In this document: piece after piece, positions 7,318-50,705 of the stretch
Numbering within the stretch: the stretch's first letter is position 1
Layout of the letters: the number at the start of each line of letters is the position of its first letter
Assembly: GCA_018831195.1 (NCBI GenBank)
Contig: JAHJDP010000020.1
Span: 1 to 51,057, forward strand
Direction: 5' to 3'
DNA length: 51,057 bases
Source: Candidatus Eisenbacteria bacterium
Lineage (GTDB): Bacteria > Eisenbacteria > RBG-16-71-46 > CAIMUX01 > JAHJDP01
Notes under the pieces: model-generated
What the model saw: only the letters and a program-made list of their open reading frames with translations
Told to the model about the DNA's origin: nothing
Database searches by the model: none
Made by a program: the position numbers and the translations under genes

Positions 7318-8699
7318 GATAACGTACGGTAATTTTCGCACATTTAGATGAAGAAAGGTGGTCCCCAATCTGGTGTAATTGTGGTTCGGACAAACCATAA
7401 GCCAGAAGGAGGACCACCATGTCTGAAAAGGATTCTACGCCAAAATTGGGAAAAGTCATACAGATTGATGAGGCCAAAGTACAGGAGCATCTTGGGGAGA
7501 TTGTGCGAGGGACGGTGGAAGAAACGTTGAATGGGCTTCTTGACGCTGAAGCCGACCGGCTCTGCCGGGCCCAGCGCTATGAGCGAACGGAAGAGCGCCG
7601 GGATACGCGCGCCGGGTCGTTTGCGAGATCTCTGGAGACGGGTGTGGGTAAGGTGACCCTCAAAGTACCGAAACTTCGCAAGTTACCGTTTGAAACAGCG
7701 ATCATCGAGCGGTATCGCCGTCGGGAGAGTTCGGTTGAGGAGGCTTTGGTCGAGATGTATCTGGCCGGGGTGTCGGTCCGCCGCGTGGAGGACATCACGG
7801 AAGCCCTGTGGGGCACCCGAGTGAGTCCGAGCACGGTCAGTAGCTTGAACAAGAAGATTTATGGTCGGATCGAGGCCTGGCGGAATCGGCCGATAACCGG
7901 CCGGCATCCCTATGTGTATGTGGACGGTGTCTATTTGAAGCGGAGCTGGGGCGGCGAGGTTCAGAGCGTTTCCGTGCTGGTAGCGATTGGCGTTTCGTCG
8001 GATGGTTTCCGTGAGATTTTGGGCGTTTGCGAAGGAGCCAAGGAAGACAAGGCCAGCTGGTTGGAGTTTCTCCGGCACTTGAAATCCCGGGGCTTGTCGG
8101 GTGTCCGGCTTTTCATCAGTGACAAGTGCCTGGGTCTACTCGAAGCCTTGGGCGATTGTTATCCTGAGACGGACTGGCAGCGGTGCATCGTCCACTTCTA
8201 TCGCAATGTTTTCAAAGTTGTCCCCAGGGGTCGTGTGCGTGAGGTGGCGGCCATGCTGAAGGCGATTCATGCCCAGGAAGACACTGAGGAGGCCCGCAAG
8301 AAGCCGCGACCGTGATCGCCAAGCTTGAGTCTCTTCAGTTGTCCAAAGCCGCTCAAATCGTGCGAGAGGGAATTGAGGAGACCTTAACGTATTACAAGTT
8401 TCCTCGGGAGCATTGGCGACGGATCCGGACCAACAATCCGATGGAACGGATCATGAAGGAAATCCGGAGGCGCACCCGAGTCGTCGGGGCGTTTCCCGAC
8501 GGCAATTCAGCCTTGATGCTCGTCGCCGCTCGGCTTCGTCACATCGCCGGTACAAACTGGGGCTCGAGGAGGTATCTTGATATTGGCTTGATGAGTGAAA
8601 CCAATGAATCCGCGGAGGAGAAGCTAGAAGTAAGTTAATTTGGAAAGGCACTGGATTTTGGGATCACAAACAAAAGTGCGAAAAATACTGGACACTACC
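7318..8699 (+). mobile_element. IS256-family insertion sequence (about 1.38 kb)
   Basis: Imperfect terminal inverted repeats of 24 bp match at about 18 positions, with the shared inner block TTTTCGCAC at 7333-7341 and its complement at 8676-8684. A direct repeat CTACAAG flanks the element (7311-7317 and 8700-8706), as expected for an IS256 target duplication, usually 8 bp. It contains a single transposase gene in plus orientation, disabled by a frameshift. The outer ends were chosen because the direct repeat abuts them exactly. Confidence 0.85.
7419..8638 (+). pseudogene. IS256-family transposase with one-base deletion
   Basis: The first frame (7419-8315) encodes about 298 residues with the Mutator/IS256 features YVYVDGVYLKRSWGG (first Asp), ISDKCLGLLEAL in place of the usual SDxxxGL (second Asp) and WQRCIVHFYRNVF. 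It ends early in EARKKPRP. The reading resumes in another frame with VIAKLESLQLSKAAQIV, RIRTNNPMERIMKEIRRRTR (catalytic Glu) and MLVAARLRHIAGTNWG to 8638. Adding one G near 8305 would restore an in-frame KKAATVIAKLE junction, so a single base is missing. The joined length of about 406 residues is normal for the family. The copy is therefore probably inactive, unless the deletion is an assembly error. Confidence 0.9.
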
Positions 8700-9910: not shown

Positions 9911-10729
9911 TTGATGAATTCAGAGGAGCCGAGGCTTAGTATACAGCGTCAATGCGAATTGGTAGGTCTTCCCCGATCATCCTTCTACCACCGAGCGAAG
10001 GGTGAGAATGCGGAGAATCTTGAGCTGATGCGCTTGATCGATGAGCAATACCTGAAGACTCCTTATTCCGGCTCACGGCAGATGGCGCGTCATTTCCGGC
10101 GACAGGGGCGTAAGGTCGGCCGGCATCGGGTTCGGCGTCTCATGCGCAAGATGGGTCTTTCAGCGGTCTACCAGAAGCCCCGGACATCCAAGCCAAATCC
10201 GGAGCACAAGATCTATCCGTATTTGCTTCGTGGGCTTGAGATCGACCGGCCGAATCAGGTTTGGTGTGCCGACATCACTTACATCCGGATGAACCGGGGA
10301 TTTATGTATTTGGTAGCCGTCATGGATTGGTCGACTCGGGCGGTTCTTTCTTGGCGATTATCGAACACCTTGGACACGAGGTTTTGTGTGGAGGCTTTAC
10401 GGGAAGCTTTGGCCCGATACGGGACACCGGAGATTTTCAACACAGATCAAGGGAGTCAATTCACCGATGAGGATTTCACCGGCGAACTCAAGAAGGCCGG
10501 CTGCAAGATTTCCATGGATGGCAAAGGCCGCTGGATGGACAACGTATTCATCGAGCGCCTATGTCGGTCTTTGAAATACGAGTGCGTTTATTTGCAGGAT
10601 TGGGAAGACGGCCTGGAAGCCGGAGAGGGAATTGAAAACTGGATGACTCACTACAACGACCATCGACCCCACTCCGCCTTTGATGACAAGACACCGATGG
10701 AGGTGTATTGTGAAATAATGGCGGCGTGA
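9911..10729 (+). CDS. IS3-family transposase OrfB (DDE integrase core)
   Basis: 272 residues. An N-terminal HTH_21-like region (YSGSRQMARHFRRQGRKVGR, RVRRLMRKMGL) precedes the rve integrase core. The acidic triad is seen in VWCADITYI (D), IFNTDQGSQFT (D) and VFIERLCRSLKYE (E, with the usual K six residues later). The C-terminal WMTHYNDHRPHSAF motif is typical of this IS3 subgroup. It appears intact. It is probably made mostly as an OrfAB fusion through the upstream slippery site. OrfA and OrfB together give a full-length element, so this IS may be active. Confidence 0.93.
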   Translation: MMNSEEPRLSIQRQCELVGLPRSSFYHRAKGENAENLELMRLIDEQYLKTPYSGSRQMARHFRRQGRKVGRHRVRRLMRKMGLSAVYQKPRTSKPNPEHKIYPYLLRGLEIDRPNQVWCADITYIRMNRGFMYLVAVMDWSTRAVLSWRLSNTLDTRFCVEALREALARYGTPEIFNTDQGSQFTDEDFTGELKKAGCKISMDGKGRWMDNVFIERLCRSLKYECVYLQDWEDGLEAGEGIENWMTHYNDHRPHSAFDDKTPMEVYCEIMAA

Positions 10730-18644: not shown

Positions 18645-19583
18645 GTGAAACTGAAAGACGCTTGCACGCTATTCGCCAATGCCAATTCAATCAACGATAT
18701 TTCTCCACATACCCGAAGAGCCTATACAAGTGATCTGAGACAATTGAATAAATTCCTCAAACTGGAAATCGCTCTTGCTGCTATCACTCCGGCAATGGTA
18801 AACCAGTGGGCTCAGTCTCTCGCAGATGAGGGATATCTCCCCGCCTCTCGCCGACGCAAGCTTGCCACCACAAGAGTTTTCTTCAATTACTGTGTGCAGA
18901 TCGACCTGATTACAATCTCCCCGATGGAAAAGATTCGGTTCCGTTTTCCAATGCGAATGGTCCCACCTCCGGTGTTAAGCTCAGATGAGGCGCGGCAGTT
19001 TCTCGCTACAATCCGGGCGACGACGAGTATCAATCCTATTCAACAACCGACGCGGTCTCTTCAAAAAGAACTGATAGTCTGGCGCAATCGAGCAATTGTC
19101 GAATTACTCCTTAGCACAGGAATGCGTGTGGGTGAATTAACAAATCTCAATATGGAGGATTTGGATACTATAGAGGGGGCAATCAGAATCCGCGGGAAAG
19201 GACAGCGCTTTCGGCAGGCATTTGTCGTTGATCCCATTGCCCTAGAGGCGCTTCAAGCCTATAAAACCCTACGTTTGCAGGTCTCAACAACTTCATCATA
19301 TCTCTTCCTGAATCGGCTCGGTAATCGACTCGGACCGCAGGGAGTGGCTCTACTCTTGCGTATGCTTGCGAACTCCGTGGGGATTCAACGGAGAATCACC
19401 CCGCATATGTTACGACATACTGCTGCGACACTGCTAATTTTGAATGGTGCGGATATACGCCTTGTGCAGGAGGTTCTCGGTCATTCATCGATTAGTACAA
19501 CGCAACGATACACCCATATCACCAAACCACAGATGAAGAATATGCTGATTCGATACAACCACATGCAGGCTCTCGCTGCCTAG
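18645..19583 (+). CDS. Tyrosine recombinase (XerC/XerD-like integrase)
   Basis: 312 residues starting at a GTG nine bases after GAGGAG. The N-terminal SAM-like core-binding domain reads SPHTRRAYTSDLRQLNKFL. The catalytic domain has LLSTGMRVGELTNL (first Arg), GKGQRFRQAFVV (Lys), PHMLRHTAATLLI (His-x-x-Arg), LGHSSISTTQRYTHI (His/Trp position and nucleophilic Tyr). All catalytic residues are present, so it should be active. It makes staggered cuts through a Tyr-DNA bond at paired inverted sites. Its stop lies 50 bp before a 17-bp repeat that is found again, inverted, 5.9 kb away, bracketing three genes. That makes a role in mobilising this unit plausible but unproven; it could also be a remnant of an integrative element. 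Confidence 0.93.
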   Translation: MKLKDACTLFANANSINDISPHTRRAYTSDLRQLNKFLKLEIALAAITPAMVNQWAQSLADEGYLPASRRRKLATTRVFFNYCVQIDLITISPMEKIRFRFPMRMVPPPVLSSDEARQFLATIRATTSINPIQQPTRSLQKELIVWRNRAIVELLLSTGMRVGELTNLNMEDLDTIEGAIRIRGKGQRFRQAFVVDPIALEALQAYKTLRLQVSTTSSYLFLNRLGNRLGPQGVALLLRMLANSVGIQRRITPHMLRHTAATLLILNGADIRLVQEVLGHSSISTTQRYTHITKPQMKNMLIRYNHMQALAA

Positions 19584-41089: not shown

Positions 41090-44000
41090 ATGTTAAAAAA
41101 GAAGTTGATCCACGCTTCCCTCCAGAGTTTTGGACAGGCTGTTACGGCCAAGATGACGCAACTCACTCACGGGGAGCCGGAGGACCAGCTGCGTGCGCCA
41201 TTCGAGCAATTCATGACTGAAGCTGCTCGGGCTATGGGAAGGAAGGTCGTTTGTACAGGCGAAACCCCCATTCCAGATCGTATTGGCCGGCCGGATTACG
41301 CTGTCCATCTAAATGGTCTGCTGGCTGGATACGTCGAACTCAAGGCTCCTGGCGTTGGAGCGAACCACTCGCGATTCAAGGGACACAACCTTGATCAATG
41401 GAAGCGTTTCTCGGCGATCCCCAACATTCTCTACACGGATGGGAACGAATGGGCACTGTATCGCAGTGGTCAGCGCGTGGGGAAGATTCTTCGGCTCACC
41501 GGGGATGTTGCGACTGAAGGGGAAAAGGCCGCATCCGCTAAAGATGCTGATATGGTCGAGCCTCTCTTGCATGATTTTCTCTCCTGGGAGCCAATAATCC
41601 CTACTGATCGAAAGGGCAAAGTCGACCTTCAAAGGTTCGCTGCCTTGATTGCCCCACTGTGCCGGATGCTACGCGATGACGTGACAGATGCACTCAGAGA
41701 TCCTGCTTCGTCACTTATCGAACTCGCCAAGGATTGGCGGGACCTTCTTTTCCCGGACGCCTCGGATAACCAATTTGCTGATGCGTATGCCCAAACCGTT
41801 ACATTCGCCCTGTTGCTTGGCCGCAGCGAGGGTGCCGACCCGCTTACCCTCAATAGCGCAGAAACCGCCCTGGCTGCGCAGCACAGCCTACTTTCTCGCG
41901 CGCTACAAGTTTTGACGGATACGCGCATACGGACTGAAATGTCCGCATCCCTGGATCTGCTCCTTCGGGTAATTGCGGTTGTCCCTCACGCCTCGCTTGC
42001 TGGCCCCAAAGACCCCTGGCTATATTTCTACGAGGATTTTCTCGCTATCTATGATCCCAAACTTCGTAAGGATGCCGGTGCCTATTATACACCCGTAGAG
42101 GTCGTCCTCGCCCAGGTCCGACTGATTGCCGATCTGCTCGTCAACCGTTTCGGCAAACGATACGGTTTCGCTGACCCAAGCGTGCTCACACTGGACCCCG
42201 CTACCGGAACCGGGACGTATCTCCTTGGCGTCATCGAACACGCCCTTAACCTGATCGAGATCGAAGAAGGCGCCGGGGCTGTCGCGGGCCGGGCCACTCA
42301 GCTTGCCACCAATCTCTATGGCTTCGAATTGATGGTCGGACCTTATGCTGTGACGGACCTCCGCATCAGTCGAGCCCTTCGCGACCGCGGCGCGGACCTC
42401 CCCGAGGAAGGTACGCATATCTATTTGACTGACACGCTGGAAAGTCCTAACGCGACACCTCCCCGGCTCCCAGCGTTCTTGCAACCTATTGCTGAGCAGC
42501 ATGCAAAGGCATTGAAGGTCAAGAGCAAGGTTCCTATCATCGTCTGCCTAGGTAACCCGCCCTATGATCGCCATCAGGCTGTTGATATAGGCGGCGAGGA
42601 TAATCTTTCTCGATGTGGCGGCTGGGTCCGATTTAGTGACCCGCTTCGTGACGTTAAGAAAAAGGATGATAAAGGGAAAGTTAGAAAGCTGAAGACCGCG
42701 AAGGCAAGGTTAGCAGAGAGAGAAAATCGGTCTATTCTTAGGAGCTTTATCGAACCTGCTGTTGACGCAGGGCATGGTGTTCACATCAAGAATCTCTATA
42801 ACCTTTATGTTTATTTCTGGCGTTGGGCTCTTTGGAAGGTCTTCGAACACGAGACTGCCCAAGGCCCTGGTATCGTTAGCTACATCAGCGCATCGAGCTA
42901 TCTGGACGGAGACGCTTTCTGCGGAATGCGAGAGCACATGCGCCGCCTATGTGACGAGATCTGGATTCTGGACCTAGGCGGCGAGGGTCGTGGCACACGC
43001 AAGAGCGAGAATGTATTTGCCATTCAGACACCAGTGGCCATCGCAGTGGCCGTCCGTTCGAAAAAGGTAAAGAAAAGCAAGCCTGCTAAAGTCCACTATG
43101 CTCCCATCGAAGGCACCCGCGGCACAAAGCTCGCTACACTAGCCGCAATCGGCGATTTCGATTCAGTCAAATGGCAGGACTGTCCCGACGACTGGCAGGC
43201 TCCATTTCGTCCAGCTGGCAAGGGCATCTACTTTACTTGGCCGCTGCTGACCGACCTCATGCCGTGGCAGCACTCGGGTGTACAATTAAAGCGAACTTGG
43301 CCCATCGGACCTGATATGGAAACCTTGAATCACCGTTGGCGGGAACTGTTATCGGCCACTGATCGATCAAAGGCACTTCGAGAAACAGGTGATCGTGTAG
43401 TAGATGGCACCTATCGCGTCAATTTAACAGGCATAGATGATTCGACACCGATTTCAAAGTTACCTCACGATGCTCCCATGCCTGGCCTACAAAGATACGC
43501 CTACCGTTCCTTTGATCGACAATATGTCATCGCTGATGGGCGCTTGATGTCACGTCCGCGCCCAGACCTCTGGCGCGCGCACAGCGAACGCCAGGTCTAT
43601 CTGACTAGCCTATTTTCGCAAGCCCTTGGTTGCGGCCCGGCCCTCACTTCTTCCGCGCTCATTCCCGACATGGACCACTTCCGTGGCTCATACGGCGCAA
43701 AGGCGGCAGTCCCTCTTTACCGCAGCCCCAACACCTCGGAAGCAAATATTCTGCCTGGTTTTCTCGAACTTCTTGGAAAGGCATACAAACGCAAGCAGTT
43801 AACGCCGGAGGAATTCCTGGCCTACGTTTACGGTATTATGGCGCAACCAGGCTTCACCGCGCGATATGCGAATGAGCTGGAGACGCGCGAGCTTCGCGTT
43901 CCAATCACGAAGGATGTGAGTCTGTTCGAGAAGGTCTACGAGATTGGCGCTAGGCTTCTTTGGCTACATACCTATGGCGAGCGATTCGTACCAAAGGGTA

Positions 44001-44479
44001 AGCGAAGCGGGCAGGTCCCGCACGGCAAAGCGAAATGTGTGAAGGCAGTTTCTTACAAACCTGAGCACTATCCTGATTCTTTTCATTACAACGGCAAGAC
44101 GAGAATGCTTCATGTCGGCTACGGGGTGTTTGCCCCTGTTGCTACCGATGTTTTCGGATTCGAGGTTTCCGGACTAAAGGTTGTACAATCTTGGCTGAAG
44201 TACCGCATGAAGAAAGGGGCCGGGAAAAAATCTTCTCCGCTTGACGACGTCCGTCCGGAGCGGTGGACAAGCAATTTTACCACCGAGCTCCTCGAACTGC
44301 TCTGGGTGCTGGAAGAAACAATTAGTGGCTATCCCGAACAGGAGCGACTCTTGCATGCCGTGACCGACGGAGAATGCTTCCGGGCCGATGAACTGCCAGC
44401 AGTTGACGAGAAGATGCGCAAGCCTTCGCGGTTAAAAGAACAGAGTGGCAATCTGTTTGATGAAGAAGATGACGGCTAG
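41090..44479 (+). CDS. Type ISP/IIG-like restriction-modification enzyme without helicase
   Basis: 1129 residues. Near the N-terminus RPDYAV and GYVELKAP (Asp69, Glu83, Lys85) form a PD-(D/E)xK nuclease. The middle helical part leads to DAGAYYTPVEVVLAQV, then the adenine methyltransferase core: LDPATGTGTYLLGV (SAM motif I, about 368-381) and LGNPPYDR (motif IV, 488-494). The last 500 residues have the type ISP C-terminal look (RAYRSFDRQYVIADGRLM-like: YAYRSFDRQYVIADGRLM) and should recognise DNA. True type ISP enzymes such as LlaBIII carry a helicase between nuclease and methylase and are about 1600 residues; here it is absent. AAAAGG precedes the ATG. It probably protects against phage or plasmid DNA. 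Confidence 0.88.
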   Translation: MLKKKLIHASLQSFGQAVTAKMTQLTHGEPEDQLRAPFEQFMTEAARAMGRKVVCTGETPIPDRIGRPDYAVHLNGLLAGYVELKAPGVGANHSRFKGHNLDQWKRFSAIPNILYTDGNEWALYRSGQRVGKILRLTGDVATEGEKAASAKDADMVEPLLHDFLSWEPIIPTDRKGKVDLQRFAALIAPLCRMLRDDVTDALRDPASSLIELAKDWRDLLFPDASDNQFADAYAQTVTFALLLGRSEGADPLTLNSAETALAAQHSLLSRALQVLTDTRIRTEMSASLDLLLRVIAVVPHASLAGPKDPWLYFYEDFLAIYDPKLRKDAGAYYTPVEVVLAQVRLIADLLVNRFGKRYGFADPSVLTLDPATGTGTYLLGVIEHALNLIEIEEGAGAVAGRATQLATNLYGFELMVGPYAVTDLRISRALRDRGADLPEEGTHIYLTDTLESPNATPPRLPAFLQPIAEQHAKALKVKSKVPIIVCLGNPPYDRHQAVDIGGEDNLSRCGGWVRFSDPLRDVKKKDDKGKVRKLKTAKARLAERENRSILRSFIEPAVDAGHGVHIKNLYNLYVYFWRWALWKVFEHETAQGPGIVSYISASSYLDGDAFCGMREHMRRLCDEIWILDLGGEGRGTRKSENVFAIQTPVAIAVAVRSKKVKKSKPAKVHYAPIEGTRGTKLATLAAIGDFDSVKWQDCPDDWQAPFRPAGKGIYFTWPLLTDLMPWQHSGVQLKRTWPIGPDMETLNHRWRELLSATDRSKALRETGDRVVDGTYRVNLTGIDDSTPISKLPHDAPMPGLQRYAYRSFDRQYVIADGRLMSRPRPDLWRAHSERQVYLTSLFSQALGCGPALTSSALIPDMDHFRGSYGAKAAVPLYRSPNTSEANILPGFLELLGKAYKRKQLTPEEFLAYVYGIMAQPGFTARYANELETRELRVPITKDVSLFEKVYEIGARLLWLHTYGERFVPKGKRSGQVPHGKAKCVKAVSYKPEHYPDSFHYNGKTRMLHVGYGVFAPVATDVFGFEVSGLKVVQSWLKYRMKKGAGKKSSPLDDVRPERWTSNFTTELLELLWVLEETISGYPEQERLLHAVTDGECFRADELPAVDEKMRKPSRLKEQSGNLFDEEDDG

Positions 44480-44672
44480 TCACCTGTGGTAGCGATCATC
44501 AGTGGGAAGACACAGTTTTGTGCTTTGACCTGGTCAATACGTGCGAGAAGAGCACTTCCTTGGGCTGGCGCCAATGTCAACTACGAGTGGACCATGAGTC
44601 CGTACCTGTCGCAGCTTCGATCAATTTGATATATCGATTTCCGGCCCTGGTCTTTCCATCGAGGAACCACCA

Positions 44673-45218
44673 ATGAATTTTCTAGATGCAATTGGTAGAT
44701 TCACCGGCTCATTGATGACGTTTGCTGCTCTCACTGCGATAATAGACCAGTTCTTAATCCGGCCTTCTCAGAAGGACGCGTTGATTGAGGCTCATGAGAA
44801 GACTGCCATACTGGCTGCATCCGTGCAGCGATGGGCTAGTGGATTTGTGTCCTTATGGGCGGCTTTCAGTCGGTCGATTGATTCAGGTGTAAATTCCATG
44901 TTATTTTTAGCGATTGATAATATTCTCTTTATCTCGAGAGACGCTGGCAACTTACAGTATTTCAACATTCTCTGCAACTCCTCATTCCCCTTGACCGCAA
45001 TAATCACTGGGGCTATACTTGGTATGTTAAATGCGTCTATCGTCATTACTTTTTGGGTACAATGCAATGAACCAACATACACCCGGACTCAGCTTCAAGA
45101 AATTAGATCTACACATTCACACACCAGCATCGAAGTGTTTTCTTGCCACACAGGTGACCCCATCGCAAATCGTCCAAAGTGCTCTGGATGCCGGATTGGC
45201 AGGTATCGCTGTAACTGA
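44673..45218 (+). CDS. Small two-helix membrane protein, C-terminus overlaps next gene
   Basis: GAGGAA seven bases before the ATG. The first 130 residues look genuine: a hydrophobic segment (GSLMTFAALTAIIDQFLI), an amphipathic middle and a second segment (LTAIITGAILGMLNASIVIT). The last 45 residues overlap the start of the PHP-ATPase gene by about 150 bp in another frame and are Cys/His/Arg-rich (HTSIEVFSCHTGD ... CSGCRIGRYRCN), unlike the rest, so the true stop may have been lost by a frameshift near 45060. It may be a membrane partner of the ATPase. No family is recognised. Confidence 0.58.
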   Translation: MNFLDAIGRFTGSLMTFAALTAIIDQFLIRPSQKDALIEAHEKTAILAASVQRWASGFVSLWAAFSRSIDSGVNSMLFLAIDNILFISRDAGNLQYFNILCNSSFPLTAIITGAILGMLNASIVITFWVQCNEPTYTRTQLQEIRSTHSHTSIEVFSCHTGDPIANRPKCSGCRIGRYRCN

Positions 45219-47766
45219 TCACAATTCGGCGGCATGGATCGAAAGGGTGCAATTGGCGGCCAAGCAGCACTTGGTCGTTTTTCCTGGAGTTGAGATCACA
45301 TGCATGGGCGGCATCACGGGCATTCACATTATTGCCCTGTTCGACCCCGCCTGCAAGCAGGCACATGTAGAAGGACTTCTCGCCTCCCTCGGTCTCCGAC
45401 CAGAGGATCACGGTAAGATCGAAACCGTGGTCCAGAAATCACCCAGTGATGTAATCGATGCCATCGTTTCCAAAGGTGGTCTTCCTGTCCTTGCCCATGC
45501 CAATTCGTCAAATGGTGCTTTCTGTGATATGAAAGGGCAACAACGTATTAAGCTTATACGCCATCCTCGGCTTTGCGCAGTGGAAGCGAGAGACTTCGCC
45601 AACAAGGAACTCGCTGCGCGAAACAAACGTGTTATCGACTTGCTGGATGGCGCTGACCCCGAGTACGAGACACATCTGGCCGTATACCAAGCTTCAGACA
45701 ATCCGGCTGCTGAAGGTTCAGGTAAACACGGCCTCGCAGGCATTGGTTCACGCTGTGCATACTTTAAGATGGATGCGGTGACTCTTGCTGGCCTGGAACA
45801 GGCATTCAACGATCCAATAGTACGGATTCGACAAGACTTTGAATACAAAACATATGAGTATCCACGTATTTCCAGACTACGTGTTGTAGGTGCTTTCCTC
45901 GACGGCTTAGACGTTCAGTTGCATGACGGCTTAACGTCTATTCTGGGCGCGAAAGGATCGGGGAAATCACTTCTCGTGGAGTTCCTTCGATTTGTCCTCG
46001 ACCAACCCTCCAGCAACACGGGCATTCGGCAGGACCATGAAGCCAAGCTCGAGGCGAGACTTGAGGAGTTCGGGACAGTAGCGGTAGATTTTCGGGACGA
46101 GACCGGCCGTGAGCTATCTGTTCGTCGCACGTATGGCTCTGGTGACATGGGCGGATATGATGAGGACTCTCCAGAAGAGGTTGCCCGGCTGTTTCCCGTG
46201 CTTTTTCTTAGTCAAAACGAGATAATACGTATTGCCGAGAATGAAGAAGAGCAGATTCAGTTTATCGACCGCTTCTTTGACTTCAGAACGTACATTTCGG
46301 AAATTGCCACGCTAGAAGGCGGCCTTGGCAGAGAAGATCGAGCTCTCGCTGAGAGCCTCCGCAGCTACACTGCCGTACAGGAATTGGAACAAGCGCTCAA
46401 ACTTCAAAAACGGGAAACATTGAAACTCGATTCGGCTCTTAAGAACGAAGTATTTGAGAACTTCAGACTTGCGGAAATTAAGCGTCGAGCCTTTCAGGAA
46501 CAAATCTCTTTCATCGAGAACCGCATCGAGATACTCGAGTCACTGGGACGCGAAGTATTGTCAAACGACGATCCATTGTTACCCGACTCCGTGGAAACCG
46601 ACCCGGCTCTAAAAAGAACCCATGCCATCCTTAAAACGGGACGCGCATCTTTGAAAGAGAAGATAGAAGATCTCATCGACGAGGTACGGAACAATCGCGA
46701 TCAGATAGAAACCGAGTTTAAGCGGTGGCTCCCGAAGTACAGAGATGTCAAGATCGCCTACAAAAAGATCGTCCAGGAGACTGGCGGCGATTACAAAGCA
46801 CTCGCCAGCTCCCGGGCCAAGCTTATTAAGAAACAGGATGGGATCCTGCTAAAACTCCGGGAAGCCAAGTCTCACACCGCCTCCATCAAACAGATCGTTG
46901 GACGTCGCAATGGTCTCCTTGACAAGCTGACGGCAGTGTACGCGAAATATACAGAGGAACGCCGCGCAAAATGCAGGCTGTTTGAAAAGGAGTCCAATGG
47001 ACACCTTAGAGTCTCGATCAGAAGCGGAACAAACAAGGACGCCTTTCGACAACAACTGCGAGCATTGAAGAAGGGATCCAGGCTTCGGGATAGTGATATT
47101 GATCGGCTCTGTGACAAGATTGCCCCGACAGAATTTGTAAATGCTCTTATTAGATTCGCATTGAGCCACAAGGTGAAATACTATGCACAGGTAGCCGAGG
47201 GCACGGGTATCGATAAGGAAAGGCTAGGGGTCCTCTTTCAATTCCTCCTTGACTCCTTTGATTATGAAAGGCTGCTCAAAATGCAGTATACGGCAATCCC
47301 AACGGATCGACCAGAGATTGCGTACAAGGTAGGAGGAGATAATTATGAATTTTTATCCCGACTGTCCACCGGCCAGAAGTGTACTGCCCTATTGATGATG
47401 GCGCTTAGCGACGGAACCATGCCGGTTGTGATTGATCAACCTGAGGATTCGTTGGATATTCGTTCGGTATGGGAGGACATGTGTTTGAAGGTCAGAGGCG
47501 GGAAGGAGAAGAGACAGTTCATATTTACGACTCACAACTCCAGCCTAGCCGTGGCTGGTGATACCGACAAATTTTTAATATTGGAAGCTACGGCGGATAC
47601 TGGAAGCGTCGTTTATTCGGGTAGCATGGATGAAGGCCCTGTCAGCGAAGAAGTACTTAAGTATCTTGAGGGAGGCCCAGATACCTACAGACTGAAGTAC
47701 CGCAAGTATAGTGCTGAGCGAATACTTGCAAGACGAACATCCAAACGAGGAAAAGAAAACATGTAA
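45067..47766 (+). CDS. PHP-domain / SMC-like ABC ATPase (TrlF-like)
   Basis: About 899 residues from the ATG at 45067 (MNQHTPGLSFKKLDLHIHT); a start at 45031 is also possible. The N-terminal PHP phosphoesterase has DLHIHTPAS (His pair), IAVTDHNS (Asp-His), FPGVEIT (Glu) and VLAHANS (His). It is followed by an SMC/Rad50-type ATPase: Walker A LGAKGSGKSLLV, Q-loop FLSQNEI, a long coiled coil, the ABC signature LSTGQKC, and Walker B VVIDQPEDSLDIRS with a His switch in FTTHNSSLAV. This PHP plus split-ABC layout is known from defence islands (the TrlF-type AAA-like ATPases). It probably senses a nucleic-acid state and hydrolyses phosphoesters. The neighbours support a defence role. Confidence 0.87.
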   Translation: MNQHTPGLSFKKLDLHIHTPASKCFLATQVTPSQIVQSALDAGLAGIAVTDHNSAAWIERVQLAAKQHLVVFPGVEITCMGGITGIHIIALFDPACKQAHVEGLLASLGLRPEDHGKIETVVQKSPSDVIDAIVSKGGLPVLAHANSSNGAFCDMKGQQRIKLIRHPRLCAVEARDFANKELAARNKRVIDLLDGADPEYETHLAVYQASDNPAAEGSGKHGLAGIGSRCAYFKMDAVTLAGLEQAFNDPIVRIRQDFEYKTYEYPRISRLRVVGAFLDGLDVQLHDGLTSILGAKGSGKSLLVEFLRFVLDQPSSNTGIRQDHEAKLEARLEEFGTVAVDFRDETGRELSVRRTYGSGDMGGYDEDSPEEVARLFPVLFLSQNEIIRIAENEEEQIQFIDRFFDFRTYISEIATLEGGLGREDRALAESLRSYTAVQELEQALKLQKRETLKLDSALKNEVFENFRLAEIKRRAFQEQISFIENRIEILESLGREVLSNDDPLLPDSVETDPALKRTHAILKTGRASLKEKIEDLIDEVRNNRDQIETEFKRWLPKYRDVKIAYKKIVQETGGDYKALASSRAKLIKKQDGILLKLREAKSHTASIKQIVGRRNGLLDKLTAVYAKYTEERRAKCRLFEKESNGHLRVSIRSGTNKDAFRQQLRALKKGSRLRDSDIDRLCDKIAPTEFVNALIRFALSHKVKYYAQVAEGTGIDKERLGVLFQFLLDSFDYERLLKMQYTAIPTDRPEIAYKVGGDNYEFLSRLSTGQKCTALLMMALSDGTMPVVIDQPEDSLDIRSVWEDMCLKVRGGKEKRQFIFTTHNSSLAVAGDTDKFLILEATADTGSVVYSGSMDEGPVSEEVLKYLEGGPDTYRLKYRKYSAERILARRTSKRGKENM

Positions 47767-48275: not shown

Positions 48276-48308
48276 CTAGGTCAATGTCAGGCAATTTGGA
48301 GGTTTGGG

Positions 48309-48689
48309 ATGAATGATGAAGTGTTGGAGCCATTTGGGTTGTTATTCTTGGAGAGTGCTCCTCCCCCTGAAAAGAGATCTGATCCAGTGTATGACAATGA
48401 AACGGACATCTCATATATCAGCGTGGAGAATGGAGATCTAGTTCCCTTTGTGGAGTCCCAGGTGAATGAGGAAACTAAAAGCACAACCGGGATCGCAAGA
48501 GAAGGTACAGACAAAGATGTAACAGATACTAAATGCGCAGGGGCCTTTGTTGGCACGAATACTGGTACAAGGATCAAACTTGAAACAACTGATAAGGACA
48601 ACCATGATCTGGTGCCTGTTTGTTGGACAATGCTTGGGACGAAGACATTGACATTTGTGAATACTGAGCCCACAGATTCAGATGATTAA
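48309..48689 (+). CDS. Graspetide precursor peptide with three core modules
   Basis: 126 residues, with a strong ribosome binding site and promoter. Residues 8-15 (PFGLLFLE) match the microviridin-type leader helix PFFARFLE, which docks on the ATP-grasp ligase. The rest carries three copies of a 15-residue module: residues 56-70 (TKSTTGIAREGTDKD), 83-97 (TNTGTRIKLETTDKD) and 111-125 (TKTLTFVNTEPTDSD), consensus T-[KN]-[ST]-x-T-x-[IV]-x-x-E-x-T-D-x-D, spaced 27 and 28. Thr/Ser upstream and Glu/Asp downstream are what ATP-grasp ligases join into side-chain esters. Segments NGDLVP (41-46) and NHDLVP (98-103) also repeat. There are two Cys (76, 105). The precursor role is inferred from these features and the next gene. 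Confidence 0.83.
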   Translation: MNDEVLEPFGLLFLESAPPPEKRSDPVYDNETDISYISVENGDLVPFVESQVNEETKSTTGIAREGTDKDVTDTKCAGAFVGTNTGTRIKLETTDKDNHDLVPVCWTMLGTKTLTFVNTEPTDSDD

Positions 48690-48775: not shown

Positions 48776-49768
48776 ATGATCTTAATTGTCACGAACAAGA
48801 AAGATTACACAGCAGATTTCCTCATCCTTGAATTAAAGAGGCAAGGAGAGAAATATGTAAGATTCAATCTCGAGGATTTTCCTCAGCATATCCGTCTTGC
48901 GTGGAAATTAAATAATGGAGTGGTTGACGGCCAGATATCATTTCCTAACCTAAATGTAGAATTCAGTGAAATTCACAGTGTTTGGTATCGAAGGCCCGTG
49001 CTCCCTCGACCAGACCCAAATATTCGCAATCCTGCAGCATATGAATTTGCTGCTTCCGAATCTCAGGCATCTTTGGATGGGATATGGCGAACACTTGATT
49101 GTTTTTGGGTGAGCCATCCCGATAATCTCAGGAAGGCAGAGTCAAAACTTCTTCAGCTAAAGATTGCCGCAAAGATAGGTTTCAGCGTATGGCCGACCTT
49201 GTTGACAAATGACCCAACAATTGGGAAGGAATTCTTTCAAGATCAGGAAGAGAATATAATTTATAAACCCATTAATCGGGCTCAACTCACCAGAGATGGT
49301 CGCGTCGATTTGATTTATACAAATCCTGTTAAGTCAAACCACCTTCCTGAATTTGATCGAATCAGCCTTGCGCCTTCACTTTTCCAAAAATATGTGCCAA
49401 AGAAGGCTGAAATACGAGTAACAGTAATAGGCAATAGAATCTTTGCCGTTGAGCTAGATTCTCAATCGCAGATTGAGTCTATACACGATTGGCGTCGGGG
49501 AGATACGGCCAAAATACGACATGGTTCCCATCAACTACCTTTAGAAACTGAAAATGCTTGTCGAGCCCTCGTTAAGGAATTGGGCCTCGCATTTGGGGCT
49601 ATTGACTTGATACTTACTCCGAAGGGAGAATATGTATTCTTGGAGATTAATCCTAATGGACAGTGGGCATGGATTCAGCAAATGTGTCCCAAAGTAGCGC
49701 TACGTCAGACGCTCACTGAGCTTCTAAGATCAGGGGTGGCATTCTATGACGACGGATGCGATGAATAA
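48776..49768 (+). CDS. MdnC/MvdD-like ATP-grasp ligase (graspetide maturase)
   Basis: 330 residues. The family opening MILIVTNKKDYTADFLILEL and the diagnostic VWYRRP (69-74) are present, as is RKAESKLLQLKIAAKIGF. ATP-grasp parts follow: IIYKPINRAQL (ATP-binding Lys), LFQKYVPKKAEIRVTVIGNR, VELDSQ, a DWRRGD loop and FGAIDLILTPKGEYVFLEIN (metal-binding Glu and Asn), then PNGQWAWIQ. Relatives form omega-ester or omega-amide links between Thr/Ser/Lys and Asp/Glu side chains of a precursor. It lies 87 bp after the precursor gene. A single ligase suggests one bond type, probably esters. No Lys-linking second ligase or acetyltransferase is seen. Confidence 0.93.
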   Translation: MILIVTNKKDYTADFLILELKRQGEKYVRFNLEDFPQHIRLAWKLNNGVVDGQISFPNLNVEFSEIHSVWYRRPVLPRPDPNIRNPAAYEFAASESQASLDGIWRTLDCFWVSHPDNLRKAESKLLQLKIAAKIGFSVWPTLLTNDPTIGKEFFQDQEENIIYKPINRAQLTRDGRVDLIYTNPVKSNHLPEFDRISLAPSLFQKYVPKKAEIRVTVIGNRIFAVELDSQSQIESIHDWRRGDTAKIRHGSHQLPLETENACRALVKELGLAFGAIDLILTPKGEYVFLEINPNGQWAWIQQMCPKVALRQTLTELLRSGVAFYDDGCDE

Positions 49769-50705
49769 GCTCCGGAAAATAATCGAAAATCTCGCACTTG
49801 ATTGGATTCCGATTCTTATTGGATACCAGCCAGTTCCTATTGAAGATCCTGATGATATCATCTCGCAGTCCGAAGCACAGAACAAATTTAAAACATTTGA
49901 TGATAAAGACAAAATCGAGGAAGCACTGGATTATTGTACGGGTCTTGTCGAGCTTGGTGACTGTAGATTGAAGAGGATTGAATCAAAAGCCATGACAATG
50001 GTAGGCTTCACAGGCGTAGCTGCTGGATTGGTCACAGGTATTGGAATTCTTTCCATGACCACGAATGGATTGAAACCACTCGCGGTGTCTCTAGTCTCTG
50101 CATTGTGTTATATATTCACCATCACATGTTTCTTCATTTCGATTTACCTGGCTTTAAAGGTCTTGGCGATTAGCGATTATAAATTTGTTACCCCGGATCC
50201 TGCAGATATCTTTCATCTTTCAGATAAACCTCTGAATATCGTTAAAATAGAGCGTGCCGCAACATTATACTACTCCTATCATCGTAACGAGCAGTTACTG
50301 AATGAAAAGGGAACCTATTTAATAGGCGCACAAAGATGGTTTCGAAATGCAATAGTTCTTCTCCTTATTCTTGCTTGTTCTTACGTGCTATCATCATTTC
50401 AGTTCAATATTTCTAGGAGTGCCCCGTCCAATACAAACATCAACCGGATTACGATATCTGAGACGGAAGAGGAAAATTCATTCAGTTGCAAAACAGAACT
50501 GCCGGGGGAAGCTGATTCTGGGCAATGCTGCAAATACAAATCGGAGATTGAAAGCTCTTCCGCTGATGTCGATAGCAATATGCTTCTACCTGAGAATAGA
50601 AATATAGAAAATGAAGATGATTCGGTTTTTATTCACATTCAATTGCTGGATTTACAGAAAGACGATTCGACAGCAGCCAGAGATCAAAATGGAGAGGACG
50701 AGTAG
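49761..50705 (+). CDS. Membrane protein of the graspetide operon, unknown function
   Basis: The ATG at 49761 overlaps the ligase stop (ATGAATAA), so translation is coupled; the frame also allows 49746. About 314 residues. A helical N-terminus (EDPDDIISQSEAQNKF, CTGLVELGDCRLKRIE) leads to two close membrane segments (TMVGFTGVAAGLVTGIGIL, LAVSLVSALCYIFTITCFFI), a helical middle (IERAATLYYSYHRNEQLL), a third segment (NAIVLLLILACSYVL) and an acidic Ser/Glu-rich tail of about 100 residues. The layout recalls small membrane effectors such as SLATT or Pycsar-type proteins rather than transporters. It could be target, immunity or export partner of the peptide; none is shown. Confidence 0.75.
   Translation: MNKLRKIIENLALDWIPILIGYQPVPIEDPDDIISQSEAQNKFKTFDDKDKIEEALDYCTGLVELGDCRLKRIESKAMTMVGFTGVAAGLVTGIGILSMTTNGLKPLAVSLVSALCYIFTITCFFISIYLALKVLAISDYKFVTPDPADIFHLSDKPLNIVKIERAATLYYSYHRNEQLLNEKGTYLIGAQRWFRNAIVLLLILACSYVLSSFQFNISRSAPSNTNINRITISETEEENSFSCKTELPGEADSGQCCKYKSEIESSSADVDSNMLLPENRNIENEDDSVFIHIQLLDLQKDDSTAARDQNGEDE

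What the first reader, a model, noticed from the sequence alone, without database searches (positions are those of the whole stretch)
48474..48683. Repeat structure inside the precursor extends beyond the 15-residue core
Besides the core modules, NGDLVPF (41-47) and NHDLVPV (98-104) precede modules one and three by a similar distance, and a Cys follows modules one and two (C76, C105). The peptide seems built by duplication of a unit of about 27-28 residues. Multi-core graspetides with linkers of this length could give a beads-on-string product.
Basis: seen in the sequence. Interest (0 to 1): 0.6.

Follow-up and report, generated by a model that had tools for sequence, protein, structure and literature searches.

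The report
Three-bead graspetide precursor with conserved leader

Summary
The 126-aa ORF (48309-48689) is a multi-core graspetide precursor. Its three 15-residue cores, T-x-[TS]-x-T-x4-E-x-T-D-x-D at residues 56, 83 and 111 (spacing 27 and 28), are far beyond chance: about 0.0002 expected, and none of 400,000 shuffles had two. They recur in homologues. The nearest (L017, an Anaerolineales MAG; ligase 49%, precursor 42% identical) has four; others have two to six. The extension fails. NGDLVPF (41-47) is the conserved end of the leader: P46 is invariant in 12 relatives and at least 90% conserved in 29. NHDLVPV (98-104) and both cysteines lie in linker insertions missing from relatives, and the pair is statistically weak. 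There is no DNA repeat and synonymous codons are saturated, so any duplication is ancient. The precursor belongs to a conserved three-gene cassette: precursor, ATP-grasp ligase, helical membrane protein. The membrane protein is in 50 of 50 multi-core loci and 5 of 45 others. Cassettes often sit beside anti-phage genes or in prophages; a defence role is an untested lead. Verdict: new member of a known kind.

The parts
48298..48302 (+). GGAGG ribosome-binding site, six bases before the precursor ATG
   Evidence: read from the sequence
48309..48689 (+). multi-core graspetide precursor, 126 aa
   Evidence: homology to L017 precursor, 42% identity, E 4e-19 for the pair; three core matches
48330..48347 (+). 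leader motif PFGLLF (residues 8-13), equivalent of the P-hydrophobic motif of graspetide leaders
   Evidence: identical in L017; P plus hydrophobics at this place in relatives
48390..48392 (+). leader Tyr28
   Evidence: invariant in A4 (12 rows) and A8 (29 rows)
48429..48458 (+).
   Evidence: P46 invariant in A4, at least 90% in A8; Pro plus two hydrophobics here in 36 of 38 relatives
48474..48518 (+). core module 1, TKSTTGIAREGTDKD (56-70)
   Evidence: pattern match
48519..48554 (+). linker 1 with C76 (48534-48536)
   Evidence: Cys region absent from L017
48555..48599 (+). core module 2, TNTGTRIKLETTDKD (83-97)
   Evidence: pattern match
48600..48638 (+). linker 2 with NHDLVPV (48600-48620) and C105 (48621-48623)
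   Evidence: longer than in relatives; LVP copy and Cys fall in alignment gaps
48639..48686 (+). core module 3, TKTLTFVNTEPTDSD plus final D (111-126)
   Evidence: pattern match
48776..49768 (+). ATP-grasp ligase (graspetide synthetase-like), 330 aa
   Evidence: PF21068 above cut-off; TIGR04187 279 bits, below its 350 cut-off; 5ig8 E 4e-50
49746..50705 (+). helical membrane protein, 319 aa, overlaps the ligase end
   Evidence: homologue in 50 of 50 multi-core loci; model helices 54-109, 112-141, 163-224

Best explanation
The ORF is the precursor of a three-core graspetide. A leader of about 55 residues (PFGLLF motif, Tyr28, ending in NGDLVPFVES) is recognised by the adjacent ATP-grasp ligase. 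The ligase joins Thr/Ser hydroxyls to Glu/Asp side chains inside each 15-residue core (T-x-[TS]-x-T ... E-x-x-D-x-D), probably making up to three ester rings per bead, so the product is three ring-tied beads on one chain. Shown: non-random core repetition, and homology of leader, cores, ligase and third gene. Inferred: the chemistry, ring order, and that the chain stays whole. The LVP pair and the cysteines are not part of the unit. The product most likely works together with the co-conserved membrane protein; whether this is for phage defence, export, self-protection or protease inhibition is open.
For: Core pattern far beyond chance; pairwise homology to L017; T, E and D of the cores invariant across 12 precursors; ligase family matches; ligases of ours and L017 sister, 100/92; multi-core precursors next to related ligases in many phyla; third gene in all 50 multi-core loci; known multivalent graspetides plesiocin and thuringinin keep several cyclised motifs in one chain (PMC12291112).
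Against: No ring has been shown here; the ligase is under the TIGR04187 cut-off; no named precursor family matches; no C39 leader peptidase is encoded in this nearly complete genome and the leader has no GG site.
Confidence: 0.88

Rival explanations
1. One reading: a 27-28 residue unit holding LVP element, core and Cys was duplicated.
For: Core spacing 27 and 28; LVP pair 5 of 7 identical; L025 has a second leader-like stretch (YDEERDLSVDRDGAPLV) before its third core, so leader sequence can be copied inward.
Against: First LVP copy is the leader end in relatives; second copy and both Cys fall in gaps; the pair is weak against shuffles; no DNA repeat.
Confidence: 0.06
2. Role A: secreted or intracellular protease inhibitor, with the membrane protein as exporter or self-protection.
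For: All characterised graspetides were reported as protease inhibitors in 2022 (PMC8939145); plesiocin potency rises with the number of cyclised motifs (PMC13097080); a membrane protein of thuringinin loci was proposed to act in peptide transport (PMC8939145).
Against: No C39 peptidase in this genome; GG in only 6 of 39 leaders; no transporter or peptidase family stands out among the recurrent families of the neighbours.
Confidence: 0.4
3. Role B: the three genes are an anti-phage or prophage-competition module in which the peptide controls the membrane protein.
For: Restriction and TrlF/Ppl-like genes directly upstream; neighbours of multi-core loci match 167 anti-phage models against 10 for neighbours of other ligases; named cases include GajA, PifA and a type III restriction enzyme; cassette in Leptospira phage LE1 and on viral contigs; weak PycTM matches of the third protein in relatives.
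Against: Model counts overstate, several models hit one protein; only 4 of 20 first downstream neighbours matched; control ligases are mostly from other phyla; PycTM match is E 0.012 for our own protein and no fold match.
Confidence: 0.25
4. The ligase does not cyclise this peptide, and the T/D/E pattern serves something else.
For: No chemistry tested here.
Against: The same donors and acceptors are kept across phyla next to the same ligase family.
Confidence: 0.05

Closest known systems
Plesiocin and thuringinin (multivalent graspetides)
   Same: Single ligase, several repeated cores with Thr donors and Glu/Asp acceptors on one chain (PMC8939145, PMC12291112)
   Different: Those have two ester links per repeat; here each core offers three donors and three acceptors. 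Our ligase matches the plesiocin-type structure 7drm only weakly (E 0.0002) and microviridin-type 5ig8 strongly; equating 7drm with plesiocin is from memory
Multi-core precursors found here in Bacteroidota and Pseudomonadota; possibly groups 34/35 of PMC13097080
   Same: Same leader signature, repeated cores, ligase, third gene. PMC13097080 says groups 34 and 35 often have long precursors with repeating motifs
   Different: Pseudomonadota cores are shorter (TKTxxxxExDD). Group identity could not be tested: the group definitions are not held
Microviridins
   Same: Ligase family with pre-ATP-grasp domain; leader Pro-hydrophobic motif
   Different: Core TxxxxPSD type as in L002; two ligases in microviridin clusters (PMC8939145); our core lacks it
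Actinobacterial graspetides (tgmA/tgmB, graspimiditides)
   Same: TIGR04187-like ligase; YD-containing leader
   Different: They sit with an O-methyltransferase and lack the third gene; their ligases form a separate clade

Membership tests
graspetide (RiPP) | ATP-grasp ligase of the MvdC/MvdD kind next to the precursor | tested here: met
   PF21068 above cut-off, 5ig8 E 4e-50, 87 bases downstream
graspetide (RiPP) | precursor with conserved leader motif near the N-terminus | tested here: met
   PFGLLF at 8-13, Tyr28 and Pro46 conserved across relatives; strict Phhx(1,2)h is only approximate because of Gly10
graspetide (RiPP) | core with Thr/Ser donors and Glu/Asp acceptors in a conserved pattern | tested here: met
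   three cores; T, E, D invariant across 12 precursors
graspetide (RiPP) | ester or amide rings actually formed | not testable with these tools
   needs mass spectrometry
TIGR04187 GRASP_SAV_5884 ligase | score at or above the curated cut-off of 350 bits | tested here: not met
   279 bits
multi-core graspetide | two or more copies of one core in a precursor, kept in homologues | tested here: met
   3 here, 4 in L017, 2-6 in others
microviridin | core of the TxxxxPSD type | tested here: not met
   absent from the sequence; present in L002
named graspetide groups 1-43 | core consensus of one group | not testable with these tools
   defining papers and supplements not held
Pycsar effector PycTM (third gene) | clear profile match | tested here: inconclusive
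   own protein E 0.012; 8 of 37 relatives at E up to 0.01, best 4e-7; no solved-structure match
Pycsar effector PycTM (third gene) | nucleotide cyclase partner gene | not tested
   the constant neighbour seen is the ATP-grasp ligase; cyclases were not searched for

The most novel reading that the evidence does not exclude
Multi-core graspetide, ATP-grasp ligase and helical membrane protein form a mobile three-gene conflict system, carried in defence islands and prophages of many phyla, in which a ring-tied peptide that stays in the cell gates a membrane effector during phage infection.
Probability: 0.25. Interest if true: 0.85.

Novelty: new member of a known kind. Interest (0 to 1): 0.42.

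Why it matters
The precursor adds a distant branch to the multi-core graspetides and shows which residues matter: leader end, Tyr28, Pro46 and the Thr/Glu/Asp set of each core. It shows that the repeated unit is the core alone. The constant pairing with one membrane protein family, and the prophage and defence-gene settings, make a graspetide role beyond protease inhibition directly testable. Literature searches in the open-access library found no paper tying graspetides to anti-phage defence genes; subscription papers were not searchable.

Tried and rejected
Ligase search in relatives, class and phylum: no close carrier. Single-protein scan of genome contigs: nothing; an alignment query then worked. 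Precursor tblastn in plasmids: nothing real. NCBIfam and Pfam on the precursor: nothing above chance. My first reading of module 3 as carrying a two-residue insert was wrong: the frame TxTxTx4E fits all three. C39 peptidase in the genome: none. Fold search of the third protein: no match. Papers defining the graspetide groups are not held, so the group number is left open. The host phylum could not be named with the tools left. Considered and rejected: recent tandem duplication at DNA level; conserved Cys suggesting thioether or disulfide links.

Full report
WHAT IS THERE. The ORF at 48309-48689 (+) encodes 126 residues and has a GGAGG site six bases before its ATG. It is followed by an ATP-grasp ligase (48776-49768) and a third ORF that overlaps the ligase end (49746-50705). 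The ligase matches PF21068 above cut-off, scores 279 bits against TIGR04187, below that model's 350, and matches solved graspetide-type ligases, best 5ig8 with E 4e-50.

THE CORE REPEAT IS REAL. Three stretches fit T-x-[TS]-x-T-x4-E-x-[TS]-D-x-D: TKSTTGIAREGTDKD (56-70), TNTGTRIKLETTDKD (83-97) and TKTLTFVNTEPTDSD (111-125). About 0.0001-0.0002 matches are expected; in 200,000 shuffles of the whole protein and 200,000 of residues 51-126, none had two. The pattern was drawn from this sequence, so the independent support is its recurrence in homologues.

THE EXTENDED REPEAT IS NOT SUPPORTED. NGDLVPF and NHDLVPV share 5 of 7 residues. Shuffling the non-module residues gives as good a pair in 43 of 2000 cases and shuffling the whole protein in 211 of 2000, and the pair was chosen after inspection. 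In relatives the first copy is the end of the leader: Pro46 is invariant in the 12-row alignment A4 and at least 90% conserved in the 29-row A8, and a Pro followed by two hydrophobic residues stands there in 36 of 38 relatives. In the nearest relative most of the second copy's stretch and the Cys region are missing. Most relatives carry no Cys in the core part.

NO DNA TRACE OF DUPLICATION. Tandem Repeats Finder reports nothing and only two chance-like 12-mers are found. Module pairs are 44-53% identical in nucleotides. Of 22 residue pairs that agree, 7 use the same codon against 8.7 expected if codons were drawn independently. The modules may still descend from one ancestor, but a duplication would be too old to show in DNA. 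Among twelve 3-core precursors, modules resemble same-position modules of other species more than other-position ones (1 of 2000 permutations). That result is driven by Bacteroidota; our own modules fit it only partly (module 3 here is nearest their module 2).

RELATIVES. No other genome of the class or phylum held (47 genomes) has the ligase, and the cassette is lower in G+C (0.41-0.44) than the window (0.50); both fit horizontal gain. tblastn on plasmids and an alignment scan of genome contigs gave about 90 loci. The closest is L017, an Anaerolineales MAG: ligase 49% identical, precursor 42% identical with four cores. The ligase tree joins the two with support 100/92; deeper placement is open. 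In all, 38 further precursors with repeated cores were collected, with spacing mostly 20-28; the larger gaps partly reflect cores my pattern missed. L022 (Kiritimatiellae) has four small tandem ORFs that each end in one core of this kind, and L025 has a second leader-like stretch before its third core. Core number thus varies by gene copies as well as within genes.

THE THIRD GENE. An iterated profile finds its homologue in 50 of 50 multi-core loci and 5 of 45 other loci. The profile started from four of those loci, so the test is not wholly independent; of the five exceptions L022 carries single-core precursors and the other four were not examined closely. The model is confident in three long helices (54-109, 112-141, 163-224) with a disordered tail; three hydrophobic segments are seen; no solved structure matches. 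PADLOC gives weak PycTM matches, best 4e-7 in relatives and 0.012 here.

SETTING. Directly upstream in the window are a type IIG restriction-modification protein and a TrlF/Ppl-like ATPase. Neighbours of multi-core loci match 167 anti-phage models where neighbours of other ligases match 10; several models hit one protein, so these are not gene counts. Looked at singly, 4 of 20 first downstream neighbours and 5 of 10 large neighbours that I chose match. The cassette is present in Leptospira phage LE1 and on four viral contigs; in L098 it lies between a repressor-like ORF and a phage tail-like ORF, named by eye from sequence. This is a lead to a conflict role, not a demonstration.

HOW IT LIKELY WORKS. 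In characterised graspetides the ligase phosphorylates Glu/Asp with ATP and a Ser/Thr/Lys side chain attacks (PMC13097080). Three donors and three acceptors per core suggest up to three rings per bead; order and number are inferred. Known multivalent graspetides such as plesiocin and thuringinin keep their beads on one chain (PMC12291112). No C39 peptidase is encoded in this nearly complete genome, so the leader may stay on or another protease may act.

VERDICT. The most interesting open point is the three-gene cassette and its prophage and defence-gene settings.

Noticed in passing
window 41090-47766: Type IIG restriction-modification protein (41090-44479) and TrlF/Ppl-like PHP-ATPase (45031-47766) directly upstream of the cassette; looks like a small defence island.
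   Followed up: partly
window 49746-50705 and homologues: Uncharacterised helical membrane protein constantly paired with multi-core graspetide ligases; weak PycTM-like matches in relatives.
   Followed up: partly
L113 4679-6580; L097, L098, L099, L101: The whole three-gene cassette is carried by Leptospira phage LE1 and by viral contigs, in L098 next to a phage tail-like ORF.
   Followed up: partly
L002 125-1438: Microviridin-like precursor of 437 aa with about 13 tandem TTxxYPSD-type cores in one ORF beside an ATP-grasp ligase.
   Followed up: no
L022 1709-2497: Four small tandem ORFs, each with its own leader-like start and one TxTxTx4E-type core at the end.
   Followed up: partly
L025 2038-2490: Precursor with a second leader-like stretch (YDEERDLSVDRDGAPLV) before its third core.
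   Followed up: partly
window 7419-8315, 9911-10729, 18645-19583: ORFs that look like transposases and an integrase by their sequence; not tested with family searches.
   Followed up: no
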